This document shows, piece by piece, positions 1,154 through 57,055 of a stretch of DNA of 64,000 nucleotides; position 1 is the first letter of the stretch; each line of letters starts with the position of its first letter. Below the pieces are notes generated by a model, which saw only the letters and a program-made list of their open reading frames with translations, did not search any database and had not been told where the DNA came from. A program made the position numbers and the translations under genes. This stretch comes from Ectocarpus siliculosus (taxonomy: Eukaryota > Sar > Phaeophyceae > Ectocarpales > Ectocarpaceae). The stretch is from NCBI GenBank assembly GCA_000310025.1, contig FN649741.1, positions 6,601,257-6,665,256 of the forward strand. Reading direction: 5' to 3'.

Positions 1154-2488
1154 GACAGGCCTAGGCGTCCGTCGCTCAAGATGTTCCTGCAGGGCTCTAC
1201 CGGGGTGTGCGGGGTGGATGGGCGGCCCGTGGTGATGATCCGGAGGCCGCCAGAGAGCTCGACGACACTGGGAAGGCAGCTGTCGTTCAACTGCCCGCGG
1301 TACATAACGGTGGGTTGCATTTGACGCTGTCGGGAGACGAGGGTGGGCCTTGTTCGAAGGTGACATTCACGACACCCTGAAAGAGGTCATTATCCGCCGT
1401 GTCTGCTTTTAACGGCAGCGAAGTTGATGGGGCAATCCTCGAGCATGCAGCTTTTATTGCAAGCTTGGTGTGTTTTTGTCCCTCATGATCTGACCGATCG
1501 GAGGGGGGGTTCTTGCGTGACGTATAGCGGCTGCCCCGAACCCAAGTTCTCGAGGAGGAGGCGGCTGACCGTGGTTGCTGCCAAGCTTTTGGTGTCCCTC
1601 AAGTCCAGTCACCGCCAGTGTCAGCGGAAGCACGAGCCTGTTCGACCTCAGGAGAAGAAGTCCGAAACGCACCCTGGCGTCCATCGACAACGGAGGAAAT
1701 ATTTATGGTTGCTCCAAAGGTGTTGTTCTTCCAATCCGGTGAAGGCGCAAGGAAAAGGAGCTGGTATTGCACCGCAAATCGAAACTCGAGCCCTGTCCAG
1801 CAGGTCGTTATTCCTTGCTCAGCTTGCCAGTAGGAACGATTTATGACCGCACGCCGATACAGAAAAGGAGGGTGAGACAGCGATATACCGTTGTGCTGAA
1901 TGCCAAACGACGACTCAGACGGGGTTCGTGAGTCTGAACAATGAACGGAGCCCAAGTTGCTAACCTATGCACGTGTTATGGTTTACCAGTCGTGGAATTC
2001 AGCTCTTGGCAGCGGTTGTGCACCCTTGTGCGCGTCTACCAGCGATTGTTTTTCTGCCGCTGCTAGCCGCAATCCCACCCACCACCGACCTACCTGAGCA
2101 AGCGAGGATATTCAACACGTCTGCCAAAGAATGACGGCTCTACTACCACCTCCTTCCCTACTGCAAACCCCAATCATGAGTATGGCGTCCCCGCCCGTAT
2201 ATCCGCGTTAACAAGGTGACCGAAATGCAGGCACTGATCGAAGCCACTCCGGTCCCGGCTCGCGTGGCCGACCGGTTGGTGAGGAAGATCGTCCACGAGT
2301 GGGTTTTCCGAAGCGACGAAAGGATCACAGGAGGTGTTTTTCAGTCGCCGGCGTCCTCGGGGGAGTACGGCAACGGCACCGGTGGTGGCAACGACGGCGT
2401 AACGGTAACGAACCCCAGGAGAACGTCCGGTAGTGACTCGTCACGGCCAATGCTGCGGCGGTGGTCGTCGTCCGCAGCCTCCCGATAG
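1154..2488 (+). CDS. gene 0: 3' end of an upstream polycystin/TRPP channel gene (last two exons)
   Basis: Two exons match the last two exons of genes A and B. Exon 1154-1309 (156 nt, phase 0-0, acceptor CAG, donor GTGGGT) encodes a basic tail segment with the motif GSTGVCGVDGRPVV. Exon 2216-2488 encodes VTEMQALIEATPVPARVADR and a Ser/Gly-rich end, stopping at TAG. The rest of the gene would lie left of position 1. Bases 1-1153 and 1310-2215 are intron and align with the last introns of the other copies. This copy differs at several tail residues, for example GGGNDG where gene A has GGSNGG. A solitary relic of the 3' end is possible, but the open frame and preserved splice sites favour a real gene. 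Function is inferred only from the paralogues. Confidence 0.6.
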
Positions 2489-4045
2489 TGTAAGGGGGGC
2501 GTTTCGTTTTGCAGGGTGTCCCTAGACTATGGCATTTCCGCCACGAAGGTTCGTGTCGGGATATTCTCGCACGGGGTGGGGGTCGGATGTAAATTTCATC
2601 GCTAGGTGTTGCCGCTTGTTGACTTTTCGAGGACTTCTCCAGCGGGAATACCCTTATCAAACGCCCATCTAGCGTCGGGTGGCACCTCTGCATGAAGTCC
2701 TTTTGGAAGGTGTCGTGCGTGGCAAAAGCGTGCGGTCGGCACGGTGTGCGCGGGGCTATGTGGTATAGGAAATGGACCCGGAGCTGACTCGGCGTGTACA
2801 GGTTTTCAGCGATTCATCTCAGGTTACGCTTTACTCGGAGTATCTTGGTACATATTTATTCGTCCGTTCTCCAATTCAATCCTTAGAATATCGCGCAAGC
2901 TGTCGCTTTGTAGGTATGTCCTTGTTCGTTTACGGAACAGCAGGGGGCGCTGTGGGTGGTGTGATAGCCTCTGCTGCTTGTGTCTTGTTTATCGTCCTGT
3001 TGAGAGTTGCTTGTTATGAGGCGCCTACGAATGCGGGGAACCCATTACCGTGTATTGTGTTTTTGTTCATGTGTTGGGTACGTTCCCGATGTTTGGCTCA
3101 TCCCGACGCCTTGCAAAGACGCACAACCGCCATCAGAGTTCACACTGGGTGGTGGTTGTTCCCCGGGATGATGGGGGGAATTTTGGAACATTTTGAGGGC
3201 GCCATTATCACCTGTGCCTCGTGTCATTTATGTGATTAGGACATGTGTCGTTCGTCTCGAGCTCCTTGCGTGTCTGTATCGCCGGCGTCCGCAAGATTCG
3301 CATCACATTAATATCAAGCATTTTTTAGGCGGTCAGCGTGAGATATTGTGGTAGTTGTGGATTGCGGGTTCAGTTTGTTGCTTTTTTCTCGGAGGCATTT
3401 TCGTATGATGAACGACCCCGAAAGTACAGCCCGTACCGTCGAGCTCGTCTGATCTGCCACCGTCTGATTTGAAACTACGAATATCCCTGGCCAAAGGGGA
3501 TTGGTGCTCGACCTCGGTGAATGTGTGTTGGGGGCCGTGGTGAGGCCTGCACTGCGAATAGATCAAAGCTCGCATGCATACTCTAAAGCTTGGAGACTTG
3601 CAAGCAATGAAAGTTCAACATTACAAAGTTCGACTTTTCGTTGTATTCGGTTTGTGGAACCGCTATGGGCCTCATCTTTCTGGAAGATTGTACGCCAAGA
3701 CACACTCACATTCATATTGCGTTTCTTGTGCGATGCGACAAAGTAACGGTGCGTTCGGGGCTCCCCCCTCTCTATTGCCACCCATGCCGGCACACGCACA
3801 AGAAAGTCCAGGTGGGGCATCGGTGGGCACGTCCACGAATGTTTCCATGGACACTTCAAGCAGCTCCGAGAGGCCTGAACGTCCCCACCGTCCCCAAATG
3901 GGGACGATAGGATGTGGCTACGTGACCTGTCCACGGACATTCCCGATACACAAGTAGGAGATCACGAACTCATTCAATGAAACTCTTACGCAAACGTTTA
4001 TTTGCGTGCGTGAGAACCTCTTGGGGGTCACTCGGGACTTTCATT
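2489..4045 (+). repeat. 3' flank of gene 0; paralogous to 30177-31750 and (inverted) 33150-34324
   Basis: Non-coding intergenic DNA. It aligns with many indels to the sequence downstream of genes A and B, and similarity to the gene A flank ends near 4045/31750. Short open frames here are not kept in frame among the three copies. I see no RNA gene or convincing terminator. Confidence 0.6.
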
Positions 4046-4139
4046 ATAGCCCGTACGAACAGTCTAGATAGCTATCCGCACAAGTTTTCTCCGCTGTCTC
4101 GCCCGGATCTCACGTGCTGCTCTCCCAGTAAGCCTACGC

Positions 4140-4667
4140 GCCCCGGCCCCTTCTCCTCCTTTTCCTACAATATCATATGCATACTCCTTTTTTATTTTTT
4201 CGCCTACGGTACGTAGTACTAATCGCCGTTTGGATTTTCTGGCTACTAGGGTGGGTTTGTGTCATTTTTCACAGGCAGGTGCAACCTTCCTGCTCTGCCC
4301 GACTCCACTCCTTCCTCGATTCTCCCATGAATATCCGCGCAGTGTTCGTCTCTCTCTTCCAATCCGAGCCACCCCCCCTGTGTTCTCCGCTGCTGCCCAA
4401 CCCCTGTGTCCAAACCGGGGTATTCGGGGTTCAACAACACAACACTATCTACGGTATGCTGCCACACTTCTGCCACAAGGGGGGGGGCGCGCGGTGGAGA
4501 ATGTTTCTGTACCTCAAATTGATAAAACAATTCGGCGAAAAGGGGGGGTGCAGGTCGCGGGGGAAAACGAAGAAGAAACGGAGCGCACACACACAGGCGG
4601 TGGGAGATATGGCGAGAGAGCGAACAGAAACTGCATAGGTGCGCAATTGGCACCAGCAGCACTAGAC
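4140..4667 (+). promoter_or_regulatory. 5' flank and probable 5'UTR/promoter of gene A
   Basis: The 50 bases just before the ATG at 4668 are identical to those before gene B's ATG, and similarity continues to about 4485. Bases 4140-4450 match the minus strand of 57640-57945, which I read as the same flank displaced by a transposon in gene B. No TATA box is evident. The frame of exon 1 stays open upstream to 4230, but a one-base indel relative to gene B near 4605 breaks the shared frame, so this part is treated as untranslated. Confidence 0.45.
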
Positions 4668-4889
4668 ATGTGGCGTTGGTTCACCTACGAGGAAGAGTAC
4701 CCGGGAGAAGAGTCGAAACATGATCCAAACAACGTACTCGCACTCCAAACCAGCAGCAACAGCGGGCGGCTTTCCGCCCAAGCGCCGCATGGCGACAGTA
4801 GCAGTAATAGCGGCATCGACAGCGACTCAGACGTGGCACCGACGTTCGACAAGCTGGACCCGTCAGTGACTGCTGCAATACTGGCCCAG
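4668..4889 (+). CDS. gene A exon 1: cytosolic N-terminus
   Basis: 74 codons beginning MWRWFTYEEEYPGEE, followed by a Ser/Asp-rich linker (SNSGIDSDSD) and a short helix-like end (KLDPSVTAAILAQ). The donor GTAGGC follows in phase 0. Gene B exon 1 (52537-52761) is one codon longer and nearly identical. No signal peptide is visible, as expected for a polycystin-2 type protein with a cytosolic N-terminus. Confidence 0.8.
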
Positions 4890-7800
4890 GTAGGCGACGT
4901 GAAGCATGCAAGGGAGCTGGAGCTCGTACTAAGGGGACACTGCTGTACTGCACATCATGACAGCACACGGAGAATTAAGGAAAAACAAAAACACACACAG
5001 AAAGACTACCCATTCGGAGAATATTCGTGCTGTTGCGGCGCAACCCGCTGTCTGCTGTACATGTACGAACGCATCTACGAAGGGCCGACGATGCGGGCTT
5101 CACACGCTCGTACAGCAGCAATGTGTGTTCATTATGCCACACGCCTGCTCACATAGGTTTCAGCACTGGAGGCATGGGTGACTACGTTTGCCAGAGTTCG
5201 AGTGGGCCGCCTCGTCATGAAGATCAACCTTCGTAACATCCGAACTTGAACTCCTCTTCTCCACTGCTCATCACTCGTCAACCCTTAGCATAGACATAGT
5301 CCATGACTCCACCACAAATTGGTCCAGATTATGCTTCCGTCATTGCGTCGTTACCCATGCACCAACCTATTCCTCGGCGAATGTTGAATCGATATAACTG
5401 TACATATTTGTGGACGTACGCGGACCCCATCAAATTCCGTGCGCGGGTTGTACCTTCTTACCCCCAAACTCCGAACGGAACGGAATTTATTTTCCTCGAA
5501 GACAATGCTGTAGTGCTGCTATACCACACCCTTTTTACACACCGGTCTTGATGCAGCTTCGGGTCGGAGACACCAAACGTGAGTGAATGCGAGAACACAA
5601 ACGTGAGCGCGGGTTGGCGCGGGCGTGCGTTTTCGCGCACCCCCCCCCTCGCCCTCCCCTTGGTGTTCGCCATCGGGGTTTTCGTCGCTTGGCAACGGCA
5701 TTGTAAAGAAAGCCGGTCACTTCGTGAGCTCGCCAACCAGGATGCCCCCCCTTTCTTTTATCTGTTTTTTTTGTTGTTGCGGTAACCATAGTGGTGGTCG
5801 AGTAGAATATGTTGTGCGGGGTCGAGAACCCTCACTCCGCGCAAAGGGGATGATCGCGCCACGTTGTGTTAAATTGGTGAAGCACCCTCGAGGCAGTTAC
5901 ACAACGCTTATAAATGTCTCTGGAAGTGAAAGCACGAGAAAATAAATGAAGTCATACGCAGCTGTCATCCGTACGCAAGGATGTAGGCACACGATGCCGA
6001 ACATCCTTAGCAGGATGCAGCGCACCCTTCATGCGACTCGCCGAATACCTCACGGCGCTGCGCGCTTGGCGATGTGAGAGCCTGGTCCGTTGAGAACCCG
6101 GACTCCTCCGTCCCGGCTTTGTCGGCATGCGAGGTCAATGGTCTAACGGCTACGGCATGCACGACTATAAGTACGCCCCCTGCCTCCCCGAACAAAACCA
6201 GGCTGCGTTTCGAGGCTACCGCCTGCGTGAGCGCCTACGCCGCCTGCCCGCGAGGGAGGCGGAGAAGCACATATTGGGCTTGTACAACAACGCTCGCGGC
6301 TTCCGGCGGGTGGGCCTCTTCTTGCTGTTTTCCGGGTTGTACTTCGCCTTGGTCTTCTACGGAGTCGACGTGTCTTTCCAGCGCTCTGTGCAGCAGGCGC
6401 TGAGGGATCATGTTGCTGGGGTGAGTCCGGGGGGGGTGGGGGGGTGGGCGAGGGCGGGGCAGCCGTGGCCATTGTGTTACAATCACGAAGAACAAGGCGT
6501 GTCTCGCCCCTTTGAACCCTGATTTGGACGCAATGGTTTGAAGCGTTTTTTTTTTTTCCCGCAACGCAACGGGTGACGGAGGACATGCACCTCGTAGAGT
6601 ACGTGCGAAGGGTCATTGTGCAGATGTCTGCCCATAGTAAGCACGATGATGGTGCTCTTACGATTTTTGTTGAAGCTAGGGAGTATTTCTTCTTGCTCTC
6701 GGTGACCTTGCTGTACGCGCCGACTGCTCCCTCCTGTGGTGCCTGCTTGCCCCCGGCAAACCAGGTTAAGTACGGTCCGGATCTGGACAAGACCCACCAT
6801 GACGTCGCCTCCCTCGCGGATGTTCACCAGTGGGTTCAGGTGGTATATATTTTGTCTATTGGTCGACAAGTGTGTATGCCAGGTTGTGCGCTTCCGCAAA
6901 GCAGCGGTCTTCGTATCGTAAACAAGGCATGGCGTGTGCAATAGTAAGCACGGTGATTTTTGCTATCATAGCTCGTCGGGCTGGGGGCCTGCCTCTGCGT
7001 TGCCGGACGTTTAAGTTTCTCAACTCCGGCCATTGCTTCAAGCTGCACCATCATCAGCACGTGCAAAATAGCCACTGGGCTTGGACTCTTGGCGGTCGTA
7101 CGATTTGTTTGGACAATAGGAGTGGGTGTGGAGATCATACCTTCTTGCAAGTCTTGCGACGAGAGGCGTCTTGCGAAGAGGGGGGCTGAGACTGCAATTG
7201 TAGGGCGCGGAGTAGTATCAGCAACTGTTTCAAGAATCAGGAAAGTCAACCGCGTGCCCCTCAAGAACCCGCAGATTCCGTCCACCGTGACAACAGGGCC
7301 ATCTCATAGGTTCGTCGGGATACACCCGAGAAATCCCTCCGCCGACACGCCGATCGTTCAGAACCCTCGATGTTTGTTCCTTTTCTCCGTCTTGATCTCC
7401 TTGTCTCTCTCAGACACAGTTATTCCATTCGCTTTGGAGTGCACTCCGATTGTAAGTTAAGCCGGTCGTACCAACCAAAGTCTCCGGCTGTTCAGCCGCT
7501 TGGGTTCCCAACAAACGTTGTTATTCTTCCCCTCTGCAGGTTTCCTACGTGTTTCATATTTTTCTCGGAGGCCTTCTCCATCGTGGCACGCTTCTGTAGT
7601 TTGGAAGCACTTCTCTCACTCCCTCCATGTTTGCTGCCTCGTCTGCTTCTTCGCTGCCTCTGTCTCCGTGCCTCTCTTCCTCTGTCTCTTATGTCTCCGT
7701 GGTCGTCTCTGTTGATCTCTCTCTGTTTATCTCTCCCTATCCCTCCCTCCCCACGTGCCTCTCTCTCGTTCTTTTCGGGGCGGGTCACCCAAACCCGGGA

Positions 7801-10800
7801 CACTACGAACAACGACCAATACAAACCGGGCGTGTAGGCCTTTTTCCTGAAGACTTACGACGGCACGCAACTGGAGCACCCTTGTACACCTTGCGCCATC
7901 AAGCCCCCTGACGATGTCTGTGATGCCTGCGACTTCACTCCCTTATACGAAATGTTCGCCAATGATTCGGATTCTTCTGCCGCCGACAATGTCGGCTCCC
8001 AAGGGGAACCCAGCCCTGGCGATGGGGTAGCAGCGGCTTGGAATGGCCGCAGGAAGGTGGCGGCTGCTTCCAGCTACAGCAGCAGCACCACCACCACCAC
8101 CTCCACCTCTTTTGGCATTTCTGAGGAGTGTGTGCAGTGCCTGGTGAGCGGGGGTCATGTACAAGGTCGTGAATGTTGTCGTGTTTGCTGCGGCCAATTG
8201 CTTGGTTCGGAGGTTATCGGAGTAGGGTAGCGCGACGTCCCCCACCCAGCCCGCCGGGAAGAGGCACAACGACACGAATTTGACGTTTCACAGCCCTCCC
8301 CTCCCCTCCCATCAAACGAACTCAACGATGGGATGGCGTTGGCGAATGCATGAATGTCTGTCGGCGCACCACCAGATCGCGCTCAACTGCGTCGGCGATT
8401 TACTACAGAATTGCCAAGAGGTTCTAGGGCTACCCTACTCCAACACCACCGCCTCTTCGTCCACAACAACGTCGGAGGCGGCGGCGGCCAATTTCTCGAC
8501 TCTTTTGGAGGAACTAGATCTTGAGCCCTCGGGCGGGGTTCGGGCCTCCGGAGGCTACGTCACCGTCGAAAACGTGAGGAATTACGCACGTCTTGCGAAT
8601 TCTTGTTAAGTGTTATGGGAAACCTCGTGGACGGACGCAGCGCTCCCTTTCTTTGTCTGCAGATGGCGTGTCGTTCCAAGTGGAGTGTTGCGGGAAACCT
8701 ACAAGACCCCGCACGTACCGCTTCCTTCCGAGATAGTTTGATAATTTGGTGTGAAGATAGCGTGGTTCTTCCAAGTTGTGAACCTGTGCTTGTCTGCAGC
8801 TCTCCTGTTTGTTTCTCCTTACAACAGGGAAAACCCGATCGCACAGAGGCGTTATGACTTCGCCGCGACACATCCGACCCTATCCGGTGTGCGCACTCCT
8901 GCGTGCCACTCCTACGTTGGCACGTAGAGTGGCGCCGCAGTCGCTTCAGCTTACCCCATTTGCAGGAAGGGTCCCGTAAGGTTACAGTTGTCGAAAGCGG
9001 CGACGGGAAGGCTGCCGTCCGTTTTGTTTGTTTTTCGTTTCCTCTTGGAAGGAAGTTCATTTTGTGGTGCTGGTCCACACGCGGGAGAGGTGCCCCATTT
9101 GACACGCATACAGAGCATGAACTCGGGTAGCGTCGGCGTTGTGCACCCGCTGATAGCACGGTGACCCGATTGGTCGAGACGGGACGACCCGATGCCGCTC
9201 CACGCATGCACAACGACCCTGTGTGCGCGAACAACCCCCGCCAGAGAGCGCACCCCAGAAGACACACATGGCAAGCATATATATATAGACTTCTATATTG
9301 TTTGGTGTCTGCCTATTTTTTTTTGCCGTCTAGCCCCCGCCGGCGCGCGAGCGACGATGAGATCAAGGTTATTTTGACGCCCGCCTTCTGAGAGCGCTTG
9401 ACCCGGCGAACTTGTGATGGGTTCTGTTGTTATTCCGTGGAGCGCTTGGCCCTGCAGTAACGTGTTCATGGAAGAGCCACGAGCGGTCAAGATCAAAGCA
9501 GACAGGCGCGCGTGAAGCCCTTGTGGCGCTTCAATACAAATAGGATCATCTTGTGCTAAAGTCACGCGCACCTATGTGGCCTCTCCCAGATGTGGCTCTG
9601 TGAAGTCTGTGCTTCGGGTTACAACGATAGCACTTGTCGGCATTTCAGGTGTCTCATTCTCTATCCTTGGCTCTTTGCTTGTTTGTTGGTGAGGTTTTCT
9701 TTCTGTTCCCTTGTGTTGGTTAACGACTGCGGAACTGTGTCTCTTTGTCTTTAGGAGTAGGGGAGAATATGTGCTGGATGGGGGTCAGAACAACGAATTT
9801 TGATATCGAGACAACACGACGACGATAACATCAACAACAACAGTAACGAAGTTACCGCCCCTTCCTGCGCTGTTTTGGCCCGTGAACTTGGAACAAATGA
9901 TCCAGGCGACCCAGTGCGACAACTTCGACCTAGACTGGGGGCACACGGAGAGACTATGGCGTTTCATGGCCGGCCTGCAGGAGCGTGATGTGTTCATAGT
10001 CGACGCGTACGCGCCTGGTGTACACGCGCCCGGTGTGGTTGCCGTTTGCGATTCACTTTGTTCCCGCGCGTCTTTCTTGCGGACAGTTGGAGTGGGGAGG
10101 AAAACCCCTACGCGCGTCGGTGCGAATCGGGCCTAGGGTGTAGCGTGTTGGGCAGCGAGCTACACACGTAGGTCATCATAGTCGTTTTTTTGTGGATATT
10201 GCATGTGCCCCATAAATGTAGTTCGCCTTCCACTGGATAGCCGTCTGTGGTATCGTGCAGTCAAGAGGATGCAAAAACCGACCGGTAGTTGCTCTCTGTT
10301 GCTTGTTAGACGCTGATGCCGGTGATCGCTCGGCCTTGCTGTGAGTTTTCCTTGGCCCGGACGTCTTGGGTGTCCTCCCGCCGTCTAGCCGACGCATCGT
10401 ATTCTGGCGGCATGCTGGATTGCTCCAACCTAACATGTCAAAGTTCCACTGACTCCGGTGGGCCCAACGCCCGCCCTGTTTCTTAGCTCACACCACGGTT
10501 TCGCTTGCTACTGGCACTGTGTTTGACAGGTTGATTATAGCGGAAACGGGTACGTTGGTGACAGAAACCGAGCAATCGGCGGGATGCTGGTGAGTGCGTT
10601 AAGCCGCATACGATGGTAGATCGTGACGGGCGGATCGTTGTTGGGTGGGTCGAGTCACACCGCGACCTGACACACCGGGAGTGTGTACGATAGATTGGCG
10701 CTAGGAGAACGTTGTGTTGTTTTCGTTCAAACTGCTGTCTCCCACTAGCTGCGCTGCAAGCCCTAACGTGCTGCGCGGATTTCTTGCACCTTGAAGGCTG

Positions 10801-40300: not shown

Positions 40301-43300
40301 AGCGGTAGAGTCCGGCCAAGGTTGTGAGGAGAAAAATGATGTGGAGTGCCCACGAGAAAAGAGCCGCTTCTTGGAGGGCCAGAACCTGCCCAACTAGCTG
40401 CGTCGACCATTGTCGTTTATTCGACGTAGCGAGCGGACAAGTAGCAAAATGGTAGGCTTTTGGGTTCCAGGGCAATCTGTCTCTGAGAACAAAAAACGGC
40501 GTTAATGCAAGCAAAATTTCGTCGGTTGCGCGCGTGGTGAATCGTAGTCCATTCCCTTCCCCACTTGCAAGTAGGAGAGCTGCGGGCAATTCCACGGTCT
40601 CTGCCCTTTGGGCTAGGCTTCAGGACACAAAATGCACGCGTACATAGCATGCACTACCATGTTTCGATGATGACCAACGATTGGCGGTAACCAGTCGACC
40701 TAGAAATTGTATTTATGGATACGGTCCTTCAGTGGCGGAGGGCGGAGGGATCGATGAATAAGGTATCGTTGAACGAGGCTACACACTACAATAGAGAGCT
40801 ACTGCAATTATGCTCGAGGTTTCTTAGAGAACATCAGCCCGGTCGAACAAACAGCCCAAAGCTAGGCCGCGTCGTGTGATGGAGCAGCGCGAACAAATCC
40901 CACGTTTTGCCGGGGCTGAAAAATGAGAGTCCTCAACCGGTAGCTCTATCGAGAATGGTGGCGACGGTGAACCTGCATGCGAAATTTTCCAAACATACCG
41001 CGTCTAGTACCGCACTCTCTTCGCCCGTGTTTTGAACAACCACCTCGAGCGCGATGACCTGTCCCAGAAATGCCCAGCCCTGCCCGAAGAAATCGCGAGG
41101 ATAAGGGGCAAATATGGCAGGGCTGTGAGGAAAACCCAGGGTAGTAGCGACACGGATGTGAGGAAAATCCGGGGTGGACGAAATTCGAAGGTTGCTTCAG
41201 GAAGGACCGACGGCCATGATGAACGTTACGGGGAATGGCGCCAAAGGGATGGACACCATGAAACTGCTGCCATCCATGCGGCAAGGAAAAGCGGGGTCAG
41301 AAGCAAAAGCAAGCACGAAGCCAAGTATGCCCACAGGCGACAACAGTGTTGCGCTTTCAAAAACGAAGCGACGGGAGGCCTGCCTGCCTGCCTGCCTCGC
41401 GACTCACCAGCCACATCAGAACGTTGAGGATGATCAGAGTGAAAAAGGTGAAGCCGCAGAAGCAGTGACATTTGTTTCCTGCGGATAGAAAACGCAGAGG
41501 GCGGAAAAGGGGGTTCCAGAGCTTGAGGTGCCGGCACAAGCCCGTCGGGGGAGCGGGGCTTCTAGCGGTCAAATGCCCCGCAGCGCATGCTGTTCACGAT
41601 GCGGGGACAACGTTGAGTCTGGAGGGACAACCAATGTGGTCACGGTACAGCTTTCGCCGCCTGCGTGCCGTGCCATATGGGGATCACTGCATCTGGTTGT
41701 CATCCAATGGAACAACAAGGGGTCGCCGTGTGTCGATAGCTCGTAGGCCCATCAGCCGCTGTTGACCCAAATGAGGCCAAGCGCCAGGACTGCCGGAGCC
41801 CGACACTGACGTAGCTACCGCTGTGCTTAGAACAGAAGCTCAAACTCACGCCTGGCCTTGGCACGCCTGTTTCGATACCACTTCCTCGTGTCGTGCCGGA
41901 TCATGGCCAGTGTCAGGCACACAAAAATCAACCCCAGGATCCACCGGATCCTGAGATGGGCGACAATGGTAGACAGTCGGGGAGAGGGAGAAGCAGGAAG
42001 GGAGACGGAAAGGAAACAGTGTTTGTGTTTCCATGCACATGGCAGCGTGAGAGAGAGACGATCAATGATAGCGAATATGAGTGAGCGACAACGAGGGAAA
42101 GAATGGGGGAGAGAATGAGAGTGCCAAGTGAAAACACGCGTGAGGAGAACCGTAGCATTTTCGCGACGGGTGTAAACACGGGATGTGGTACACGGGCCAC
42201 GGTTGCGGATTTCATCCGTGACGCAAGGCAAGACTCAAGCCGAACGAAGGGGTTCAAGCCGCCAGTGACAGCAAGTTTCATGTGAGGGATGGAGTGAACC
42301 TGCCGATGTGAGTACAACTTCTACGCATAACAGTGATCTTGCTGTTGTTGCTGCTGCTGCTGCTGCCGCTGCTGCTCCCGCTCCCGCTCCCGCTGTCGAA
42401 GTTTCTACTACGGCGGCTGCTACTACCCCTGCCTCTACTGTCGAATCTGCGTCTCATACTGCACCTGTCACTCCCCTGTCCTGCGTTTCCTGTCAGAATG
42501 TAGGCCGTCACGAGCTCGTTCGCCTCTACTTCACCCCCTGCGGAGGTACAAACGAACCAGAGATGTAAGACCGAAAAACAGGTGGCGGGAGCTTGTTGGT
42601 GGTGGTGTTCATAGTGGTGGTGATGGTACTTCAATGTGTTGTGTTCGTCGCTGTTGTTTGCTGCTGCTGCTGCTGATGCTGCTGCTGCTGCTTCTGCTGT
42701 TGCTGCTGGTGTTCGATGTTCTGTCTTATCCCCACTTGAAACGCTGCTCCGACGCCTGCACGGCCCAAAGACTACTCACGCGATTTCGTTCAATCCACCG
42801 CAAAACCGTCAGTTCGCCCCCGTCAAAAACGAGATCCGAATACATAGCGGAAAATATTCTCTGTGTTTGCTGACTATAGTATGCTATACTAGCTTGCGAA
42901 CGATGGGTTTTCGAAGACCGGGACCTGATATCTGGCGTAATGGTTCCAAGGGATCTTGTGCCCCAATAGCAGAACAAAATCCGCCACACGGGAGCAAACT
43001 TGACAGTGCTTCCTGGTAATTTCGGACCATAAAACAGCAAAAATCAACCGACGAACCATACAACTTCGACGAGATCATGCATTGGTGAGTCGTCCACGCC
43101 CACGTTGATGCTACGCAAACCACCACCAAAACAAACGTCGGTACTGCTCGACGCGAAGCTCGTGAGATAGAACGAAAACCAATTTCGCCATCTTCACTTG
43201 CTTGTACAGCACACTACCTCTGCACAACGGTAACAACGAAAAGTAGCACAACGGTTCAGCAACCAAGAGACACCGACGCCGAACGATGCATCTCCAACGC

Positions 43301-46300
43301 CCTACAGCAGTACTGATGAAAAATTAATATTTCCGGCAGCGCTCACTCGGCGCAGGCGCTCCTGCCAGCGGGTAAAAAAAACACCTTGGTTGTCAAGGCC
43401 AAGGCCGTGTACGATCTTGACAGGGAAATAGACAACAACAAGCCTAAAACTGTTCAACCGAAATCCGCACCGGGGTGGAAGCCTTGGGCGATGGTCATGG
43501 AGCTAGAGCAACGGCAACCAGAATTCTAGGGTATTGAACTCTAACCCGATGTTGAGGGAACAATGGCAAACATTGTCCATAACCTCTTTCACAAGAATCC
43601 AGTATACCACATCAAAGATACGCCATACCAGACTAAAGCAAACGATCGAAAGGGTGCCCGATGTTGATGGAACCATGAGCAAAGATGAACCACTACCGTA
43701 AAATCAAACAAAAAAGCGAGAGAGTGAACCCGGCGTTGACAGAACCGACCCAAAGATACGGAATATTACCAGACCAAAACCCAAATGCGCTTAGCGTACG
43801 TGAACCCGGGTAGGCAGTGTCAGAGCAAAGATACTCCAGTTTACCAAGAAAAACCAGTTTCCACTTCACACCGTCGAAAGCGGGCCCAATTTGACAAACC
43901 AAGAGCAAAGAGACATCATCACCAGCCAAACCAAATTCCGCTCAACCCGATGGATCGCAAGCCATTGATGGGAGCTGAGAAAAGCCAAACCACAACCTGA
44001 ATTATCCAAATCCGCTTACCGTGATCGAAAGTGAAGCCGATGTTGATAGAGCCGAAGGCCGACCCCTGGTTCCCGTTGTATGTCACGAGAAGAACATTCA
44101 CGGAGCGAACCTCGTCCCGAGGGATCACGTCCAGATCTTCCATCACCAAGAGGGTGCAGTACCCAAAGTTGAGCTGCTTGTATGGCGAGAACCATGGTGC
44201 GCGTGTATTTGCGGGTAAGCCGATCGTGCATCAACATGGCAAGGTAAGTGGGAATCGGGGATCTCTCCGGCAGTCGGGTATCACAAGGGGTTCGGTCTAG
44301 TGAAGAGGAGAGAGGCGAGAGGGTGGCAATATGTAAGAAGACGTACACAGACAAGTCAGAGCTTCTGCGACTCCGTGTCGACGCTCCATGTCTGCCCGTG
44401 TGCGCAGTCGTGGTTGCCGAACCTTGCAAGGCCCGATGTCGTCGGCTGAAATGGGTTTTGGGCTGGCAAAATACTCACCGAGGTGCATGTTCGAGCCAGT
44501 CGAAAAGCAACCGTTGTACATCGCTGCTGCGCGTACCCCCTCCCCCCCCCGCCTAGGAATTGTCGAAGCCTCCTGCATGCTCCAACGTGCTTCGTTAGTT
44601 TCGAGCACACACGATCCTACAGTATGCACAGCAAAAACAGAAGAAACGATGTATGACAGCCAGCGTCGCAAAGGCTGTGGGCGTACCTCACAAGGCGGCA
44701 TGTGAATAGAGGCGTCATGTTCTCTGCTTCCACAGCAGCTTCGGCGACAGTCTGAGAGGCTGCTGTTGTTGTTCTCTTCACATGAAACACCGTGCCTTCA
44801 TCAGTCTGTACTGATCTACCACTTGACGCGGTCGATTCCCGTTGTCACAGGCAAACGTTCCCACAAAAGGTACACTCGAGAAAAATGCACCCGAAGGGTC
44901 CCAAAAACAAATAAAAAACAGAGACACATATTCTTCAATCTATGTGACGTAAGAATGGAGCTGAAAGGCAACATCACGGCGGACCGGAGAGGTACATCCC
45001 CGTTCAATCTTGGTGCCGGCGGATTGTTCTGAGTTCTGCCCACAAATATCAGGGCCTGCTGCCTCATCTCCACGCAAGAAAGCGAGTCTCCCCTCTACTC
45101 GAATGCAGACGTGGCAACACTTGTTGAGTGTGCCGTTCACTCACCCCAGCGTTGAAGCCTCCGGCGTCGAGGAGCACAGGGTATCCAGATGCCACTGAGA
45201 AAAGCAGTGAGTTAGGGTAGGCAGGAGGTTTAGCAACCAGAGTAAACATGAATAACGAAAGGGGCGCCAAAACATTCGAAAAGCCCCCTCGCGGGGATGT
45301 CTTGAGAGACCAAGCAGTCAACCCGGAGGTACACCAAACTGTACTAGGTACTGCTGTAGCCCCGATTGGTTGTGAGGTCTGCGAAGAGCCGGCGCTACAA
45401 ACATGGCCCCGAAAAAATACAAGAGGGTGGTGTGACAAAGGGCCTCTGACCCTCGTACACCAGAGCCATCTCTCATCCCGGTAAGAGGGTACCCAACTAC
45501 ATATAGCGTGTCGACCCCGTGACAACCGATTTCGATCCTATCATATCGGAGCCCCTTTTTGTAAGGTACCGTGTAACGGAGCCACGACTTTACCTTTATC
45601 AGCTGGTGACTACAAGGAACACAAACCTCCGCTGTAGACCATTTGTTCGCCGAATCTCAAGGATCCCCATGGCTGTGGTAGGGTATAGGTGGTCTTGTTG
45701 GTACCCTCGTCGGCTAGACAGATATCGTAGTAGTCGCCGGACGAGGACGAAGAGCACTCATCGCTCGAGAGTCGATTTCTGCGGGTGAATGTCACCTACA
45801 GTTCGCCGAAGGGTAGAGGGGGGGGAGTGTACGCATTGTTGTGCATGCCGTTGTCGTTGGACCATTGACCTCGCATCCCCACAAAGCCGGGACGGAGCAC
45901 GCCGGGTTCTCACCGGACCAGGCTCTCACATCGCCAAGCGCGAAGCGCCGTGAGGTATTCGGCGAGTCGCATGAAGGGTGCGCTGCATCCTGCTAAGGGT
46001 GTTCGGCATCTTGTGCTTACTTCCTTGTGCACGGATGACAGCTGCGTATGACTTAATATATTTGCTGGTGCTTTCACTTCCAGAGACAGTTGTAAGCACT
46101 GTGCAACTGCCACGAGGATGCTTCACCATTTTAACACAACGTGGCGCGATCATCCCCCTTGCGCGGAGTGAGGGTTCGAAACCCCGCACAACATAATCTA
46201 CTCGACCACCATTATGGGTACCGCGAAAAAATAACAGAGGAAAAAATAAAAACGGTAACCTGGTTGCCAAGTTCACCAATGAATTGGTTTGTTTTACAAC

Positions 46301-49300
46301 GTCGTTGCCAAGCGACGAAAACCCAATCCCGATGGCAAACACCGAGGGGGGGGCTTGTTTTACAACGTCGTTGCCAAGCGACGAAAACCCAACCCCGATG
46401 GCAAACACCGGCCGGGGGCGGCGGGGGGGGTGTACTCATAGTCGTGCATGCCGTAGTCGTTAGACCATTGACCTCGCATCCCTACAAAGCCGGGACGGAA
46501 CACGCCGGGTTCTCACCGGTGGCGGCGGGGGGGGGGGGGCACATAGTGGCTGTAGCAAGTTGCGAAACGAGCGGAAACTTCAAAACACGCGAAAAAACAA
46601 AAGTACAGCAGCGGCCATCCAGCGAAGGGGGGGGCAAAATACCAAATATTCCCCCCCCGCATCTCTTTCCTTTCGAAGGGGGGGGAGGAAATGCGGGAGT
46701 ATTTGGTCTCTGTACACGAAACAAACAATACCAGGAGCTAGCACGGCAGTATTCAAAGGTGCAAAAAAATGCGCGCAGCACGTTAGGGTAGCAGCCCAGC
46801 TGGTTCGGAGACAGCAATTTGAACAAAAACTACACAACGTTCCACGAGTGAAAACTGTTCCTAAAAAATCCTGGTGTGTCAGGTCGCGGTACGACTCAAC
46901 CCACCAACCCCGATCCGCCCGCCAAGATCTATCATCGCATGCGGCTCAACGCACTCACCAGCATCCCGCCGATTACTCGGTTTCTGTCGCCCACGTACCC
47001 GTTTCCGTCGTAATCAATCTGTCAAACAAGATCACCAGAATCACCCGAAAGCATGGCATGAGCTAGGAAAAAAGAGGGCTGGCGTTGGGCCCACCGGAGT
47101 CAGTCCCGTTTGGGTGGAAATCTTGAAATTGAAATTTTGAAATTTTGACATGTTAGGTTGGAGCAATCCGGCATGCCGCCAGATGCGCCGACTAGACGGC
47201 GGGGGGACACCCAAGACGTCCGGGTCAACGGGACACACACACCAGCGACGAGCAAACAACAGAGAGGAAGTACCGATCGGTTTTCGCACCCTCTTGACTG
47301 AACGATGCCACAGACGGCTATCCAGCGGAAAGCGCATTGCATTTACAGGGCACATGCACCATGCACAAAAAACAACTATGATGACCCACGTATGTAGCTT
47401 TGCTGGCAAAAGCGCTACACCCTAGGCCAGATGCGCGCCGACGCGCGTACGGTTTTCCTCCCTACTCCAACTGTCCGAAAGAAAGACGCGCAAGAAGAAA
47501 GTGAATCGCAACCGGCAACCACAACGGGCGCGGGTACACCAGGCGCGTACGCGTCGACAATGAACACATCACGCTCCTCCAGGCCGAAAAAGAAACGCCC
47601 GAAACTCTCCGTGTGCCCCCAGTCTAGTTCGAAGTCGTCGCACTGGGTCGCCTGGATCATTTGCCAAGTTCACGGGCCAAAACAGCGCAGGAGTAGAGGC
47701 GGAAACTATTTGTTGTTGATGTTAATGTCGTCGTCGTCTTGTCTGGATATGAAAATTAATTCTGGCCTCCGTGCAGCACCTATTTTCCCCTACTCCTTGA
47801 GACAAAGCGACAAAGTCCCGAGGTCGTGAAACAACACCAGGCATCACACCGAAAAACCTCCCCCGCAAATAAGCAAAGAGTAACGAGCAAGGATACACAC
47901 GCGAGACGCCCGAAATGCAGACAAGTGCTATCGTGTTCATCCAAAGCGCCGACTTCACAGAGCCACATCTGGGAGAGGCTACATAGGTGCGAGTGACATT
48001 AGCGCAAATGATCCTGCTATCTGAATTGAAGCGTCGCTAGGATTTCACGCGCCCCTGTCTGCTTTGATCTTGACGGCTCGTGGCTCTTCCATGAACACGT
48101 TACTGCAGGGAAAGTGCTCCACGGAAGAACAGCAGGAGTCATCACAACTAGGCCGGGTGAAGCGCTCTCAGAAAGCGGATGTCAAAATAACCTTGATCTC
48201 ATCGTCGCTCGCTTGCTGGCGCGGGCTAGACGGGCAAATAAAATATGCAGACACAAAACAATAAAAATACTTGGTGCGTTCTCTGGTGGTGGTGTTCGCG
48301 CACACAGAGTTGTTTTGCATGCGTGGAGCGGCATCGGGTCGTCCCGTCTCGACCAATCGGGTCACCGTGCTTGCAGCGGTTGCACAACGCCGACGCTACC
48401 CGAGTTCCTGCTCTATATGTGTGTCAAATGGGGCACTGCAGGTAACCTTCCCGCGTGTGGACCAGCACCACAACATACACTTCCTTCCAAGAGCAAAAAT
48501 ATATATATATATATATGATATATATGGACAGCAGCCTTCCCGTTGCCGCTGTCGACAACTGGATGCTTCCGGGACCCTCCTGTAACCAGCGCAAGATGAA
48601 GCGAGCGCGACGCCACTCTACGTGCCAACATTGGAGTGACACGCAGGAGTGCGAACACCGGATTCGCGCGGATGCGTCGTGGCTAAGTCGTAACGCCTCT
48701 GTGCCATCGGGCTTTCACTGTTGTGACGAGAAACGCACACACAACAAGGAGAGCTGCAAACAAGCACAGGTTCACATCTTGGAACGACTGCGTTATCTTC
48801 ACACCAAATTGTCTCGGAAGGAAGTGGTGCGTACGGGGTCTAAGAGTTTCCCTCAACACTCTACTTGGAGCTACACGCCATCTGCAGACAAAGAAAAAGG
48901 GAGCGCTGCGTCCGTCCACGAGGTTTCCTATAACACTTAACAAGAATTCGCAAGACGTACGTTGAATTCCTCACGTTTTCGATGGTCACGTAGCCTCCGG
49001 AGGCCCGAACCCCGCCCGAGGGCTCAAGATCTAGTTCCGCGAGGAGGGCGGAGAAATTGGCCGCCGCCGCATCCGACGTTGCTGTGGACGACGAGGCGGT
49101 GGTATTGGAGGAGGGTAGCCCTAGAACCTCTTCGCACTTCTCTAGGAAAACACCCACGCAGCTGGTCGCGATCTGGTAGTGTGTCGACAGGCATGCATTC
49201 GCCAACGCCATCCCATCGTTGAGAGCGTTCGTTTGATGGGAGGGGAGGGGAGGGCGGCGAAACGTCAAATTCATGGGGCTGTGCCTCTTCCCGGCGGGCT

Positions 49301-52300
49301 GGGTAGGGGACGTCGCGATACCCTACTCCGATGACCTCCGAACGAAGCAACTGGCCGCAGCAAAAACGACATCATTCACGACCTTGTATATCACCCCCGC
49401 TCACCAGACACTGCACACACTCCTCAGACAGGCCCATAGTGCTGCTGCTGCTGCTACTGTCGCCGGAAGCAGCCGACATCTTTCTGCGGCCGTTCCAAGC
49501 CGCTGCTACCGCCTCGCCAGTGCTGGGTTCCCCTTCGGAGCCGACAGAATCGGCTGAAGAAGAATCCGAATCCTCGGCGAACATTTCGTACACGGAAGTG
49601 AAGTCGCAGGCATCACAGACATCGTCCGGGGGCTTGATGGCGCAAGGTGTACAAGGATGCTCCAGTTGCGTGCCGTCGTAAGTCTTCAGGTAAAAGGCCT
49701 ACTTGCTCGGTTCGTATTGGCCATTGTTCGTAGTGCCCCGGGTTTGGGTGACCCGCCCCCAAAAGAACGAGAGAGAGAGAGACGTGGGGAGGGAGGGACA
49801 GAGAGGGAGAAATAGAGAGAGAGAAATAGAGAGAGATGAACACGGAGAAATACAGAGACAGAGAAAGAGAGGGACGGAGACAGAGAAAGCGAAGAAACAG
49901 ACGAGACAAGCAGAAATGGAGAGTGAGAGAAGTACTCCGAAACTACAGAAGCGTGCTACGGTGGATATGGCCTTCGAGAAAAGGCATGAAAGAAGCGGGG
50001 AACTTGCTGAGGGGAAGAATAACAACGTTTGTTTGAAACCCATGCGGCTGAACAGCCGGAGGCTTTGGCTGGAACGACCTGCTAAACACACGATCGGAGT
50101 GCACTCCAAAGCGGATGGAATAACTCCGCCTGAGAGAGACAGGGAGAAAAGGAAACACCATCGAGCGTTCTGAACGATTGGCGTGTCGGCGGAGGGAGTT
50201 CTCGGGTGTATCCAACGAACCTATGAGGTGGCCATGTTGTCAGGCTGTACGGAGTCTGCGGGTTCTTGAGGGGCACGCGGTTGCCTTTCCGTTTTTTTTT
50301 AACAATTCCCGTCATTATTCCGCGCCCTATATTAGCAGTCTAAGCCGCTTCTCTTCGCATGGCGCCTCTCTTCACAAGACGTGCATGAAGGCACGATTTC
50401 CACACCCACTCCTAGTGCCCCAACAAATCATACGACCGCCAAAAGTCAACGTCCAGTGGCCTTATGCACGTGCTGATGATGGTGCAGCTTGAAGCAATGG
50501 CCGGAGATGCGAAACTTAAAAGTCCGGTACCCGTGAAGGAAGACAGCAGACAGGCAGGGCCCCAGCCCGTCGAGTTATGACAGCAAAAATCACCGTGTTT
50601 ACTTTTACACACGACATGCCTTGTTTACGATACGAAGATCGCTGCTTTGCGGAAGCACACAACCCGGTACAGACATCGTCGACCGATAGACAAAATAAAT
50701 ACCACCTCCGTCGTTCCTTGCCCACCTGAACCCACTGGTGAACATCCGCGAGGGAGGCGACGTCATGATGGGTCTTGTCTAGATCCGGACCGTACTTAAC
50801 CTGTCTCGCCAGGGGAAAGCAAACACCACAGGAAGAAGCTGTCGGCGCTAACAGCAAGTTCATCGACAGCAAGAAGGAATACTCCCTAGCTTCAAGAAAA
50901 AACGAAAGACCATCATTATCGTGCTTGCTCTGGGGAGACCTCTACACAAATGCCCTTCGCACGTACCCGACGAGGTGCATGTCCTCCGTCACCCGTTGCC
51001 TTGTGGAAAAAAAATAAACCCCGCTTCTATGGCGTCGAAATCAGGGGTTCAAAGGGGCGAGACACGCCTCTTCTTCGTCAACGTAGTACAATGGCCAAGG
51101 CTGCCCCGCCCTCGGCCCCCCAACCCCCCCCTCCCTTCCCAGACTCACTCCGGCAACGTGATCCCCCAGCGCCTGCTGCACAGAGCGCTGGAAAGACACG
51201 TCGACTCCGTAGAAGACCAAGACGAAGTANNNNNNNNNNNNNNNNNNNNNNNNNNNNNNNNNNNNNNNNNNNNNNNNNNNNNNNNNNNNNNNNNNNNNNN
51301 NNNNNNNNNNNNNNNNNNNNNNNNNNNNNNNNNNNNNNNNNNNNNNNNNNNNNNNNNNNNNNNNNNNNNNNNNNNNNNNNNNNNNNNNNNNNNNNNNNNN
51401 NNNNNNNNNNNNNNNNNNNNNNNNNNNNNNNNNNNNNNNNNNNNNNNNNNNNNNNNNNNNNNNNNNNNNNNNNNNNNNNNNNNNNNNNNNNNNNNNNNNN
51501 NNNNNNNNNNNNNNNNNNNNNNNNNNNNNNNNNNNNNNNNNNNNNNNNNNNNNNNNNNNNNNNNNNNNNNNNNNNNNNNNNNNNNNNNNNNNNNNNNNNN
51601 NNNNNNNNNNNNNNNNNNNNNNNNNNNNNNNNNNNNNNNNNNNNNNNNNNNNNNNNNNNNNNNNNNNNNNNNNNNNNNNNNNNNNNNNNNNNNNNNNNNN
51701 NNNNNNNNNNNNNNNNNNNNNNNNNNNNNNNNNNNNNNNNNNNNNNNNNNNNNNNNNNNNNNNTTTTTTTCCAATGTGGTTCCCAAGGGAGGAAAACCTA
51801 CCCCGGATGGCAAACCCCGTTTTGGGGGGGGGGGGGGGGGTTGCGCGAAAACGCACGCGCGCGCTCAAGTTTGTTGTTACCGCATTCACGCACGTTTGGT
51901 GTGTTGCTCCTGCCTCCAACCCGAACTTGTACCAAGATGGGTGTGAAAAAGGGTGTGGTATAGCAGCATTACCACAGCATTACCTTCGCGATGGGAGTCT
52001 CGCAATTAGCAATATATTCCGTTCCGTTCGGAGTTTGGCGGTGAGAAGGCACATCCACAGACGGAATGTGATGGTGTCCGCGTCCGCCCACATTTATGTA
52101 CAAGTATATGAATTCAACATTCGCCGAGGACTGGGTTGGTGCATGGGAAATGACGTGATGACTGAAGCAAAATCGGGACCAAATTTGTGGTGGGAGTAAC
52201 ACCGATTGACGAGCAGTGGAAGAGGAGTTCAAGTCCCGAACAGGTTGATATGCACGACGAGGCGGCCCACTCGAACTCTGGCAAACATACGTAGTCACCC

Positions 52301-52761
52301 ATGCCTCCAGTGCTGAAACCTATGTAATCAGGCACGTGGCATGATGAACATACATTGCTACTGTACTCGCTGCACGCACGATTTGTAGCCCGCTTCGTCG
52401 GCGGCCCTTCCGATGCGTATGTATGTACCGCAATGATGCCAGGGTTACGCCGCAACAGCACGAACACTCTCATTGCTGTCGGGCCATGATGCTAGGATGT
52501 GCGGTACAGCTCTCATGCATGTCTTATGCCGCCTACCTGGGCCAGTATTGCAGCAGTCACTGACGGGTCCAGCTTGTCGAACGTCGGTGCCACGTCTGAG
52601 TCGTTGTCGGTGTCACTATTGCTGCTACTGCCGCCGTGCGGAGCTTGAGCGGAAAGCCGCCCTCCGCTGCTGCTGCTGGTTTGGCGTGCGAGTACGTTGT
52701 TTGGATCATGCTTCGACTCTTCTCCCGGGTATTCTTCCTCGTAGGTGAACCAACGCCACAT
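34325..52761 (-). CDS. gene B: polycystin/TRPP (PKD2-like) cation channel, complete except an assembly gap
   Basis: Same 18-exon structure as gene A, on the minus strand. Exons: 52761-52537, exon 2 (end at 51149; upstream part in the N-gap), 50801-50727, 49698-49405, 49172-48975, 47651-47538, 45795-45627, 45194-45145, 44173-44020, 42537-42465, 41950-41850, 41478-41408, 41079-40999, 40385-40290, 38884-38792, 38187-37954, 35649-35494, 34597-34325. About 891 codons if exon 2 has gene A's length. No stop or frameshift is seen in assembled exons, so it is probably functional. The pore (RISLGESENF), S6 and the CxxC insert are kept. Exon 15 is identical to gene A, while exons 6, 13 and 18 differ most (tail HDWVFQSAERITG). 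The GC donor of intron 14 is also kept. Intron 9 is only about 1.5 kb because it lacks gene A's insertion. Confidence 0.83.
36655..37140 (+). repeat. 0.6-kb interspersed repeat, truncated, in gene B intron 16
   Basis: Starts at GTGAGGTATTTGGCGAGTCG and lacks the outer module found in other copies. It carries the B box and the paired TTGCCAAGCGACGAAAACCC modules. It ends in a long G run followed by the gap at 37192. Confidence 0.6.
37192..37291. other. assembly gap (100 N)
   Basis: Exactly 100 N between G/A homopolymers next to a 0.6-kb repeat, probably a gap of unknown size. The flanks belong to the last large intron of gene B, so no exon is expected here. Confidence 0.95.
37954..38187 (-). 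CDS. gene B exon 16: pore and S6
   Basis: 78 codons, phase 0-0, same acceptor and donor positions as gene A. It differs from A by VEAWG for EDAWQ in the pore helix, VAVV for VVVV at the start of S6 and AIFLE for AILLE at its end. The filter LGE is unchanged, so both genes should conduct with similar selectivity. Confidence 0.9.
39434..40197. mobile_element. MITE-like DNA transposon in gene B intron 14
   Basis: The 764-bp counterpart of 23739-24508, with the same inverted ends (GGGCGTGCACTATCGTCCC and its partner) and the same 3-bp flank read as TGA on this strand. Same intron position, so the insertion predates the A/B duplication. Confidence 0.65.
45806..46535 (+). repeat. 0.6-kb interspersed repeat inserted in gene B intron 6, absent from gene A
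   Basis: Lies just upstream (in gene sense) of exon 7, between CACCTACAGTTCGCCG and GCACATAGTGGCTGTAGC. Gene A has these two flanks about 25-30 bases apart (11003-11034). It contains the best B box of the family (GGTTCGAAACC at 46173-46183), an A-box-like TTAACACAACGTGG, and a repeated outer module at both ends. Confidence 0.65.
48496..48535. repeat. (TA)n microsatellite in gene B intron 5
   Basis: AAATATATATATATATATATG followed by ATATATATGG. The matching place in gene A does not show an expanded tract; a shorter ATATATATAG lies at 9276-9285. Confidence 0.7.
49765..49935. repeat. GA-rich tract (CT-rich in gene sense) upstream of gene B exon 4
   Basis: A run of GAGAGA-type repeats. In gene sense it is the polypyrimidine region of intron 3. 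Gene A has a related CT-rich stretch at about 7590-7790, somewhat shorter. Confidence 0.7.
51230..51763. other. assembly gap (534 N) covering part of gene B exon 2
   Basis: The assembled part of exon 2 starts at YFVLVFYGVDV, in the middle of S1. The missing upstream half of the exon, the intron acceptor and probably a 0.6-kb repeat lie in the gap: the right edge shows CCNGATGGCAAACCCC-like repeat sequence and a G run. Open frames spanning the N run are artefacts. Confidence 0.95.
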
Positions 52762-54387: not shown

Positions 54388-54393
54388 GATATT

Positions 54394-56490: not shown

Positions 56491-56496
56491 GAGACA

Positions 56497-56970: not shown

Positions 56971-57055
56971 CGACGTACGAATCCCGTCGGCAGCAATCGG
57001 CAGGCCCTTTTCCGAGATTTAGATTCAAAGCCATATCGCCCCGGAGACAGAAAGA

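What the first reader, a model, noticed from the sequence alone, without database searches (positions are those of the whole stretch)
1154..52761. A cluster of at least three polycystin/TRPP genes, two intact and tail to tail in a large inverted duplication
Eighteen exons in gene A and their counterparts in gene B join in phase without stops, and the last two exons of a third copy lie upstream in direct orientation. Local amplification of a Ca2+-permeable channel family by both tandem and inverted duplication suggests dosage or functional divergence, for example in flagellate or egg stages. The phenotype is inference.
Basis: partly seen in the sequence, partly recalled or inferred. Interest (0 to 1): 0.75.

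Follow-up and report, generated by a model that had tools for sequence, protein, structure and literature searches.

The report
Triplicated polycystin-like calcium channel genes
A genome that looks like a brown seaweed's carries three complete-looking copies of a polycystin-like ion-channel gene side by side, two in a row and one flipped; the channel type is already known, so this is a local gene expansion and not a new kind of system.

Summary
One 19-exon model stays in frame in three copies, with AG acceptors at every readable site and GT donors except one GC donor shared by all three. A (+) lies at 4668-30176, B (-) at 52761-34325. The third copy, C (+), is also complete, but only its last three exons lie in the window. 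In B, 138 of 219 bases of exon 2 are an assembly gap. The 935-aa product of A matches PKD_channel (E 4.9e-18); its best solved relatives are PKD2L1 and PKD2, over S4-S6. The polycystin (TOP) domain was not detected, so I call it polycystin-like. Proteins are 89-90% identical, aligned DNA differs by 13-14%, dN/dS is 0.36-0.44. One distant homolog sits on C14 and no further near-identical copy was found, which argues against a haplotype artefact; no reads were examined. Local near-identity suggests gene conversion. A and the C14 homolog each have a sub-threshold IQ motif before S1. Many EsV-1-7 motifs suggest a brown alga, a group with a published TRP expansion. Stage-specific roles are untested.

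The parts
4254..31747 (+). Unit A, one arm of the inverted duplication, with gene A (start codon 4668, stop codon ending 30176, 935 aa)
   Evidence: self-comparison, curated model
33155..57848 (-). Unit B, inverted arm, with gene B (start codon at 52761, stop codon ending at 34325); the stretch about 52.96-57.66 kb is an insertion relative to A
1..4043 (+). 3' end of unit C (direct copy); the rest lies upstream of the window, from about -15578
31748..33154 (.). Spacer between the tail-to-tail arms A and B, free of N
4668..4889 (+). A exon E1
6202..6420 (+). A exon E2: rest of the IQ-like motif, S1
6765..6839 (+). A exon E3 (extracellular loop)
7838..8143 (+). A exon E5 (extracellular loop; E4 was dropped)
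8376..8573 (+). A exon E6 (extracellular loop)
10530..10589 (+). A exon E7 (extracellular loop)
11035..11203 (+). A exon E8 (extracellular loop)
11675..11724 (+). A exon E9 (extracellular loop)
12540..12693 (+). A exon E10 (extracellular loop; conserved with the C14 homolog)
21419..21491 (+). A exon E11
22003..22103 (+). A exon E12: S2
22478..22548 (+). A exon E13: S3
22856..22939 (+). A exon E14: S3-S4 loop
23539..23646 (+). A exon E15: S4, followed by a GC donor conserved in all three copies
25050..25142 (+). A exon E16: S4-S5 linker and start of S5
25753..25986 (+). A exon E17: S5, pore with LGE, S6
27946..28025 (+). A exon E18: just after S6
28723..28960 (+). A exon E19 (C-terminal)
29904..30176 (+). 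A exon E20 with stop codon
52537..52761 (-). B exon E1
51149..51367 (-). B exon E2, of which 138 bases are N; extent inferred from A
50726..50800 (-). B exon E3
49405..49698 (-). B exon E5
48975..49172 (-). B exon E6
46959..47018 (-). B exon E7
45627..45795 (-). B exon E8
45145..45194 (-). B exon E9
44020..44173 (-). B exon E10
42465..42537 (-). B exon E11
41850..41950 (-). B exon E12: S2
41408..41478 (-). B exon E13: S3
40999..41079 (-). B exon E14
40290..40397 (-). B exon E15: S4
38792..38884 (-). B exon E16
37954..38187 (-). B exon E17: S5, pore, S6
36448..36527 (-). B exon E18
35494..35731 (-). B exon E19
34325..34597 (-). B exon E20 with stop codon
221..300 (+). C exon E18
1072..1309 (+). 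C exon E19
2216..2488 (+). C exon E20 with stop codon
37192..37291 (.). Assembly gap of 100 N in the B intron between E17 and E18, between poly-G runs
51230..51763 (.). Assembly gap of 534 N that hides most of B exon E2
13005..20095 (.). About 7 kb insertion in the A intron between E10 and E11, absent from B and C

Best explanation
Three paralogous genes for a polycystin-like (TRPP-type) cation channel lie in one block of about 68 kb: C and A in direct tandem, B inverted and tail to tail with A. Shown here: homologous units that include the introns, one shared 19-exon structure, open frames, and homology of S4-S6 with the pore to PKD2L1 and PKD2. Inferred: each gene makes a six-helix subunit that assembles as a tetramer; the large S1-S2 extracellular region senses a stimulus; cations, probably Ca2+ among them, pass a filter with the sequence LGE; calmodulin on an IQ-like motif just before S1 gives Ca2+ feedback. 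The cluster arose by one direct and one inverted duplication (A and B slightly closer to each other), followed by some copying of sequence between units.
For: Inverted and direct units. One 19-exon frame in three copies, readable acceptors all AG, donors GT but for one shared GC. PKD_channel E 4.9e-18 (A) and 5.8e-18 (C), Ion_trans above cut-off in both. Profile against solved structures: PKD2L1 1.5e-13, PKD2 6e-12 to 1e-10; TRPML and TRPC 0.06 or worse. Six hydrophobic regions with a loop of about 380 residues between the first two. dN/dS 0.36-0.44, bootstrap upper bounds 0.58 or less; pore region 93-96% identical, extracellular loop 86-89%. IQ-like motif in A and in the C14 homolog, 17.9 and 18.3 bits against a cut-off of 20.3. 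A-B closest: 1076 shared sites against 876 and 870.
Against: No profile detected the polycystin (TOP) domain. No transcript evidence. Exons were picked partly for low amino-acid change, so dN/dS is biased down. Exon 2 of B is mostly N. The IQ matches are below the curated cut-off. Filter LGE, not the LGD of PKD2. Gene-finder runs differed between copies before curation.
Confidence: 0.85

Rival explanations
1. The inverted copy B is an assembly artefact: two haplotypes or a misjoined scaffold.
For: Two gaps lie in B; the part of B beyond 37191 is joined through a 100-N gap.
Against: Bases 1-37191 hold A, the spacer and B's last three exons without N; sequence on both sides of the gap is collinear with A. 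Aligned DNA differs by 13-14%. A genome search listed 50 matches in the three units, 3 on C14 and no further near-identical copy; 53 of 60 first-look candidates were scored.
Confidence: 0.04
2. One or more of the copies is a pseudogene, not transcribed or decaying.
For: dN/dS of 0.36-0.44 is not low; A carries a 7-kb insertion in an intron and B a repeat element in two introns; B exon 2 is unread.
Against: No stop or frameshift in any readable exon of any copy, splice sites conserved; pore more conserved than the loop in all three pairs.
Confidence: 0.2
3. It is a member of another TRP-like family that shares only the S4-S6 module with polycystins.
For: The polycystin domain was not detected; Ion_trans also matches.
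Against: PKD2L1 and PKD2 lead TRPML and TRPC by about ten orders of magnitude in E-value; PKD_channel scores 65.8 bits against 29.9 for Ion_trans; the long S1-S2 loop fits polycystins, though it fits TRPML too (recalled).
Confidence: 0.1
4. The copies are specialised for flagellate cells, gametes or eggs.
For: Five polycystin/REJ-like proteins were expressed only in male Ectocarpus gametes (PMC3879662, passages); two PKD2 homologs rise during zoospore formation in an oomycete (PMC7399828, passages).
Against: Those are other genes: the cluster proteins show no REJ domain and 0 of the 6 REJ matches listed lie on C16. No expression data here.
Confidence: 0.15

Closest known systems
PKD2 / PKD2L1 (TRPP, polycystin-2 family)
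   Same: S4 to S6 with the pore align (E 1.5e-13 for PKD2L1); six hydrophobic regions and a long S1-S2 loop
   Different: Polycystin domain not detected; filter LGE where PKD2 has LGD (quoted in PMC7399828); IQ-like motif before S1; Pfam found no further C-terminal domain
Oomycete PKDRR channels (stramenopile polycystins)
   Same: PKD channel domain in a stramenopile; filter varies, LGA or AG(D/E) (PMC7399828, passages)
   Different: PKDRR proteins mostly carry RyR-type R domains; none was found in A or C by Pfam
Ectocarpus Esi0130_0068 (PKD/REJ-like)
   Same: Polycystin cation channel signature in a brown alga (PMC4700764, passages)
   Different: 1427 aa with REJ and GPS domains; A and C show neither
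Brown-algal TRP expansion in general
   Same: TRP channels reported as greatly expanded in brown algae, 51 in Sargassum fusiforme (PMC11085791, section 2.6)
   Different: The passages I saw describe no cluster of this arrangement

Membership tests
TRPP / polycystin-2 | PKD_channel domain | tested here: met
   A 4.9e-18 (65.8 bits), C 5.8e-18 (65.6 bits), cut-off 22.4
TRPP / polycystin-2 | Six transmembrane helices with a large extracellular S1-S2 loop | tested here: met
   Hydropathy only: 9 windows in A falling in six regions, loop about 380 residues; C adds a borderline seventh at 262-280; shuffles gave a mean of 3.07 and 3.33 and a maximum of 11 and 10 windows
TRPP / polycystin-2 | Polycystin (TOP) domain between S1 and S2 | tested here: inconclusive
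   No Pfam hit in the joined proteins or the loop alone, none in solved structures, none in the genome; but the genome search rang in no control genome either and says it does not show absence
TRPP / polycystin-2 | S4-S5 linker, S5, pore and S6 closest to PKD2 among solved channels | tested here: met
   single-sequence search agrees
TRPP / polycystin-2 | Cation conductance as a tetramer | not testable with these tools
   needs expression and recording
PKD1 / REJ-type polycystin | REJ, GPS or PLAT domains before the channel | tested here: not met
   none in A or C at E up to 10; the 6 REJ matches listed in the genome are on C9, C251 and C2
Oomycete PKDRR | RyR-type R domains | tested here: not met
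   none in A or C

The most novel reading that the evidence does not exclude
A brown-algal branch of polycystin-type channels with a calmodulin-binding IQ motif immediately before S1 and an LGE filter, whose three clustered copies share a conserved pore but have diverging extracellular sensors, are kept partly alike by gene conversion across direct and inverted arms, and assemble as mixed tetramers that tune Ca2+ entry.
Probability: 0.15. Interest if true: 0.5.

Novelty: new member of a known kind. Interest (0 to 1): 0.3.

Why it matters
It gives an exon-level model for a polycystin-like subfamily in what appears to be a brown alga, a lineage in which TRP expansion is reported but, in the passages I saw, not dissected gene by gene. 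The cluster is a natural setting to ask whether tandem and inverted duplicates of a Ca2+ channel diverge in their sensor region while sharing a pore, and whether an N-terminal IQ motif regulates them. It does not change the view of how such channels work.

Tried and rejected
A first gene finder with cheap gene boundaries split the gene into pieces; later versions with higher costs gave one gene per copy, though the exons they chose differed between copies and some were rejected in curation. An exon at 7414-7451 was dropped because its length does not fit the phase between its neighbours. Small candidates at 9981-10019, 11482-11543, 20561-21060, 23318-23370 and 26068-26162 were dropped as not needed for the frame or not consistent across the copies. 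A start of exon E18 at 27893 was replaced by 27946, which joins in phase after S6 and gives a product that aligns with PKD2L1 there. The finder missed S1 and, in its first versions, S4; S1 was found with the C14 homolog and S4 by reading the aligned copies, then confirmed by the finder once GC donors were allowed.

The curated exons have none.

For divergence and conversion tests, A columns outside 4611-31200 and in 5500-6210, 8560-9480 and 26600-27830 were left out as flanks, repeats or misaligned insertion (in one search the 8560-9480 stretch only for pairs with C). Run test: A-B 15 sites (3 of 2000 shuffles as long), B-C 12 (1 of 2000), A-C 7 (709 of 2000). Window test: A-C also had a window below all 1000 shuffles, 12 differences in 300 inside the last exon and, with exons removed, 17 in 300 at 7760-8365 against a minimum of 19. 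So low windows are not special to A-B and B-C, and uneven constraint or rate may explain part of them.

Three other PKD_channel loci, two on C3 and one on C11, have long open exons and are not among the 53 matches to the cluster protein; set aside. The Rfam scan of the window gave nothing at gathering thresholds. The pore exon gave no match in phage records. The paper searches listed no paper that I could recognise by title or abstract start as describing this cluster; I read passages of six papers and one section of one of them. Pfam found no domain in four of five ORFs from the inserts, so retroelement labels there, apart from the RVT_1 ORF, rest on copy number and on motifs recognised by eye.

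Locus L010 was fetched but not analysed.
Full report
What was checked. The window is G000:C16:6601257-6665256, in a 189-Mb assembly of 492 contigs. A search for the EsV-1-7 cysteine motif listed 150 matches, all 150 candidates that were scored out of 880; that this motif is abundant in brown algae is recalled, and the species was not identified. Self-comparison shows unit A (about 4.25-31.75 kb, +) against unit B (about 57.85-33.16 kb, -), and 0-4.04 kb as a direct copy of 27.8-31.75 kb. Thirty kb of upstream sequence shows that this direct copy is the end of a third unit, C, that starts near window coordinate -15578.

Gene model. A three-way alignment of the units served a comparative exon search that scored open frame, synonymous bias and conserved splice sites, followed by curation by eye and with a distant homolog. 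The result is 19 exons that join in phase in A, B and C: 2808, 2796 and 2796 nt, with only a terminal stop. All 53 readable acceptors of 54 are AG (B exon 2 is unread); of 54 donors 51 are GT and 3 are the GC donor after S4. In B exon 2, 138 of 219 bases are N. Labels run E1 to E20 because E4 was dropped. The model is a prediction; no transcript was available.

What the protein is. A (935 aa) and C (931 aa) match PKD_channel at E 4.9e-18 and 5.8e-18, and Ion_trans above its cut-off. A two-row profile finds PKD2L1 (E 1.5e-13) and PKD2 (6e-12 to 1e-10) among solved structures, aligned from S4 through S6 to just beyond it; TRPML reaches only 0.06 and TRPC 0.17. Hydropathy of A gives six regions: S1 (111-129), S2 (510-528), S3 (548-566), S4 (606-624), S5 (656-674), S6 (716-734); C adds a borderline one at 262-280, and shuffled sequences had a mean of about 3 and a maximum of 10-11 windows against 9 in A and 12 in C, so the count alone is weak. 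The filter reads LGE in all three copies. The polycystin (TOP) domain was not detected by Pfam or in solved structures; the genome-wide search for it found nothing, but it rang in no control genome either. I therefore call the protein polycystin-like and leave membership in TRPP proper open.

The IQ-like motif. Directly before S1, A has an IQ match at E 0.0024 (17.9 bits) and the C14 homolog one at E 0.0018 (18.3 bits), both below the cut-off of 20.3; in the whole protein of C it scores 14.2 bits, E 0.038, and in whole A it was not listed. Its presence at the same place in two proteins that share 36% identity over a compared 67-residue stretch makes it more credible than either score alone. 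That the C14 stretch is spliced to its S1 exon was not shown.

Paralogs. The 858-aa first model gave 53 matches (53 of 60 candidates scored): 50 on C16, within the three units, and 3 on C14 at 2.799-2.804 Mb; 11 of the 53 rows carry stops, where that model or the match runs past an exon. No further near-identical copy appeared. PKD_channel itself rang at 6 places (19 of 19 candidates scored): the three cluster pores, two loci on C3 and one on C11, whose open exons are long.

Divergence and selection. Proteins are 794/884, 840/931 and 786/881 identical for A-B, A-C and B-C. dS is 0.129, 0.138 and 0.161; dN/dS is 0.439, 0.385 and 0.358, with bootstrap intervals of 0.323-0.581, 0.288-0.498 and 0.263-0.486. 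Intron divergence in that call was 0.152, 0.211 and 0.204, but the pairs with C include a misaligned insertion; with it and the repeats removed, divergence over all columns is 0.142, 0.159 and 0.159, and shared-site counts are 1076 (AB), 876 (AC) and 870 (BC). A and B are thus slightly closer. Because exons were picked partly for low amino-acid change, dN/dS is biased down; the contrast between regions is less exposed to this: the pore region is 93-96% identical, the extracellular loop 86-89%.

Conversion. A-B has 5 differences in 300 columns at 23470-23769 and B-C has 9 in 300 at 20588-20972, against minima of 16 and 17 in 1000 shuffles each; with exons removed the values are again 5 and 9, against minima of 15 and 19. 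A-C also falls below all shuffles (12 in the last exon; 17 against 19 in introns), so uneven rates contribute. Shuffling assumes an even rate, the A-B patch includes exon E15, and conversion is therefore likely but not proven.

Is it an artefact? Bases 1-37191 contain no N and hold A, the spacer and B's last three exons in inverted orientation. The rest of B follows a 100-N gap flanked by poly-G runs, with sequence on both sides collinear with A. With 13-14% divergence and no extra copies found, a haplotype artefact is unlikely, though no reads were examined.

How it most likely works. Shown: gene structure as predicted, homology of S4-S6, hydropathy, constraint. Inferred from the family: a tetrameric cation channel with an extracellular sensing region, Ca2+ feedback through calmodulin at the IQ-like motif, and possibly mixed tetramers of the three products. 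Any role in flagella, gametes or eggs is untested.

Literature. TRP channels are reported as greatly expanded in brown algae, 51 in Sargassum fusiforme (PMC11085791, section 2.6 read; passages). Polycystin/REJ-like proteins specific to male gametes are reported in Ectocarpus (PMC3879662 and PMC4700764, passages); they are of a different, REJ-bearing type. Oomycete PKDRR channels vary at the filter (PMC7399828, passages). Copper-activated TRP responses in Ectocarpus rest, in the passages seen, on inhibitors (PMC5907779). Tandem and proximal duplicates are numerous in two Sargassum genomes (PMC12089773, passages). The searches showed no paper that I could recognise as describing this cluster.

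Verdict. New member of a known kind; interest 0.3.

Noticed in passing
13005-20095: About 7 kb present in A only. An ORF at 13379-13915 (-) looks by eye like a tyrosine recombinase and one at 14165-15343 (-) like a reverse transcriptase/RNase H region, as in DIRS-type retroelements; Pfam found no domain. The first ORF gave 150 matches in the genome (150 of 493 candidates scored), one elsewhere 100% identical.
   Followed up: partly
53379-55737: Two ORFs (-) of a second element of the same look, inside a stretch (about 52.96-57.66 kb) that interrupts the 5' flank of unit B relative to A; one ORF gave 129 matches in the genome (94 of 283 candidates scored). No Pfam hit.
   Followed up: partly
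26603-27822, 36662-37149, 45818-46519, 5651-6180: Short interspersed repeat of about 0.5-0.6 kb, in tandem in A; a 231-base piece matched at 40 scored places of 1845 candidates, all listed at a rounded 100% identity, so it looks recently spread. A and B carry it in the same intron; C does not.
   Followed up: partly
59422-60117: ORF with a reverse transcriptase domain (RVT_1, E 1e-11).
   Followed up: no
16317-18719: Tandem repeat arrays with periods near 250-260 bases inside the insertion of A.
   Followed up: no
56080-56484: Two head-to-tail copies of a 202-base unit, 98% alike.
   Followed up: no
L005, L006, L007: Three further PKD_channel loci, two on C3 and one on C11, with long open exons of another channel type; the C3 match near 1.0145 Mb holds one stop.
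   Followed up: partly
L008 and L009 (C14:2793501-2812000, minus strand): Single distant homolog of the cluster gene, with recognisable S1, loop end, S4-S5 linker, pore (LGE) and S6, and an IQ-like motif before S1.
   Followed up: partly
7838-8143 and 8376-8573: Paired cysteines (aa 188/191, 200/203, 270/273) in the predicted extracellular loop of A.
   Followed up: no
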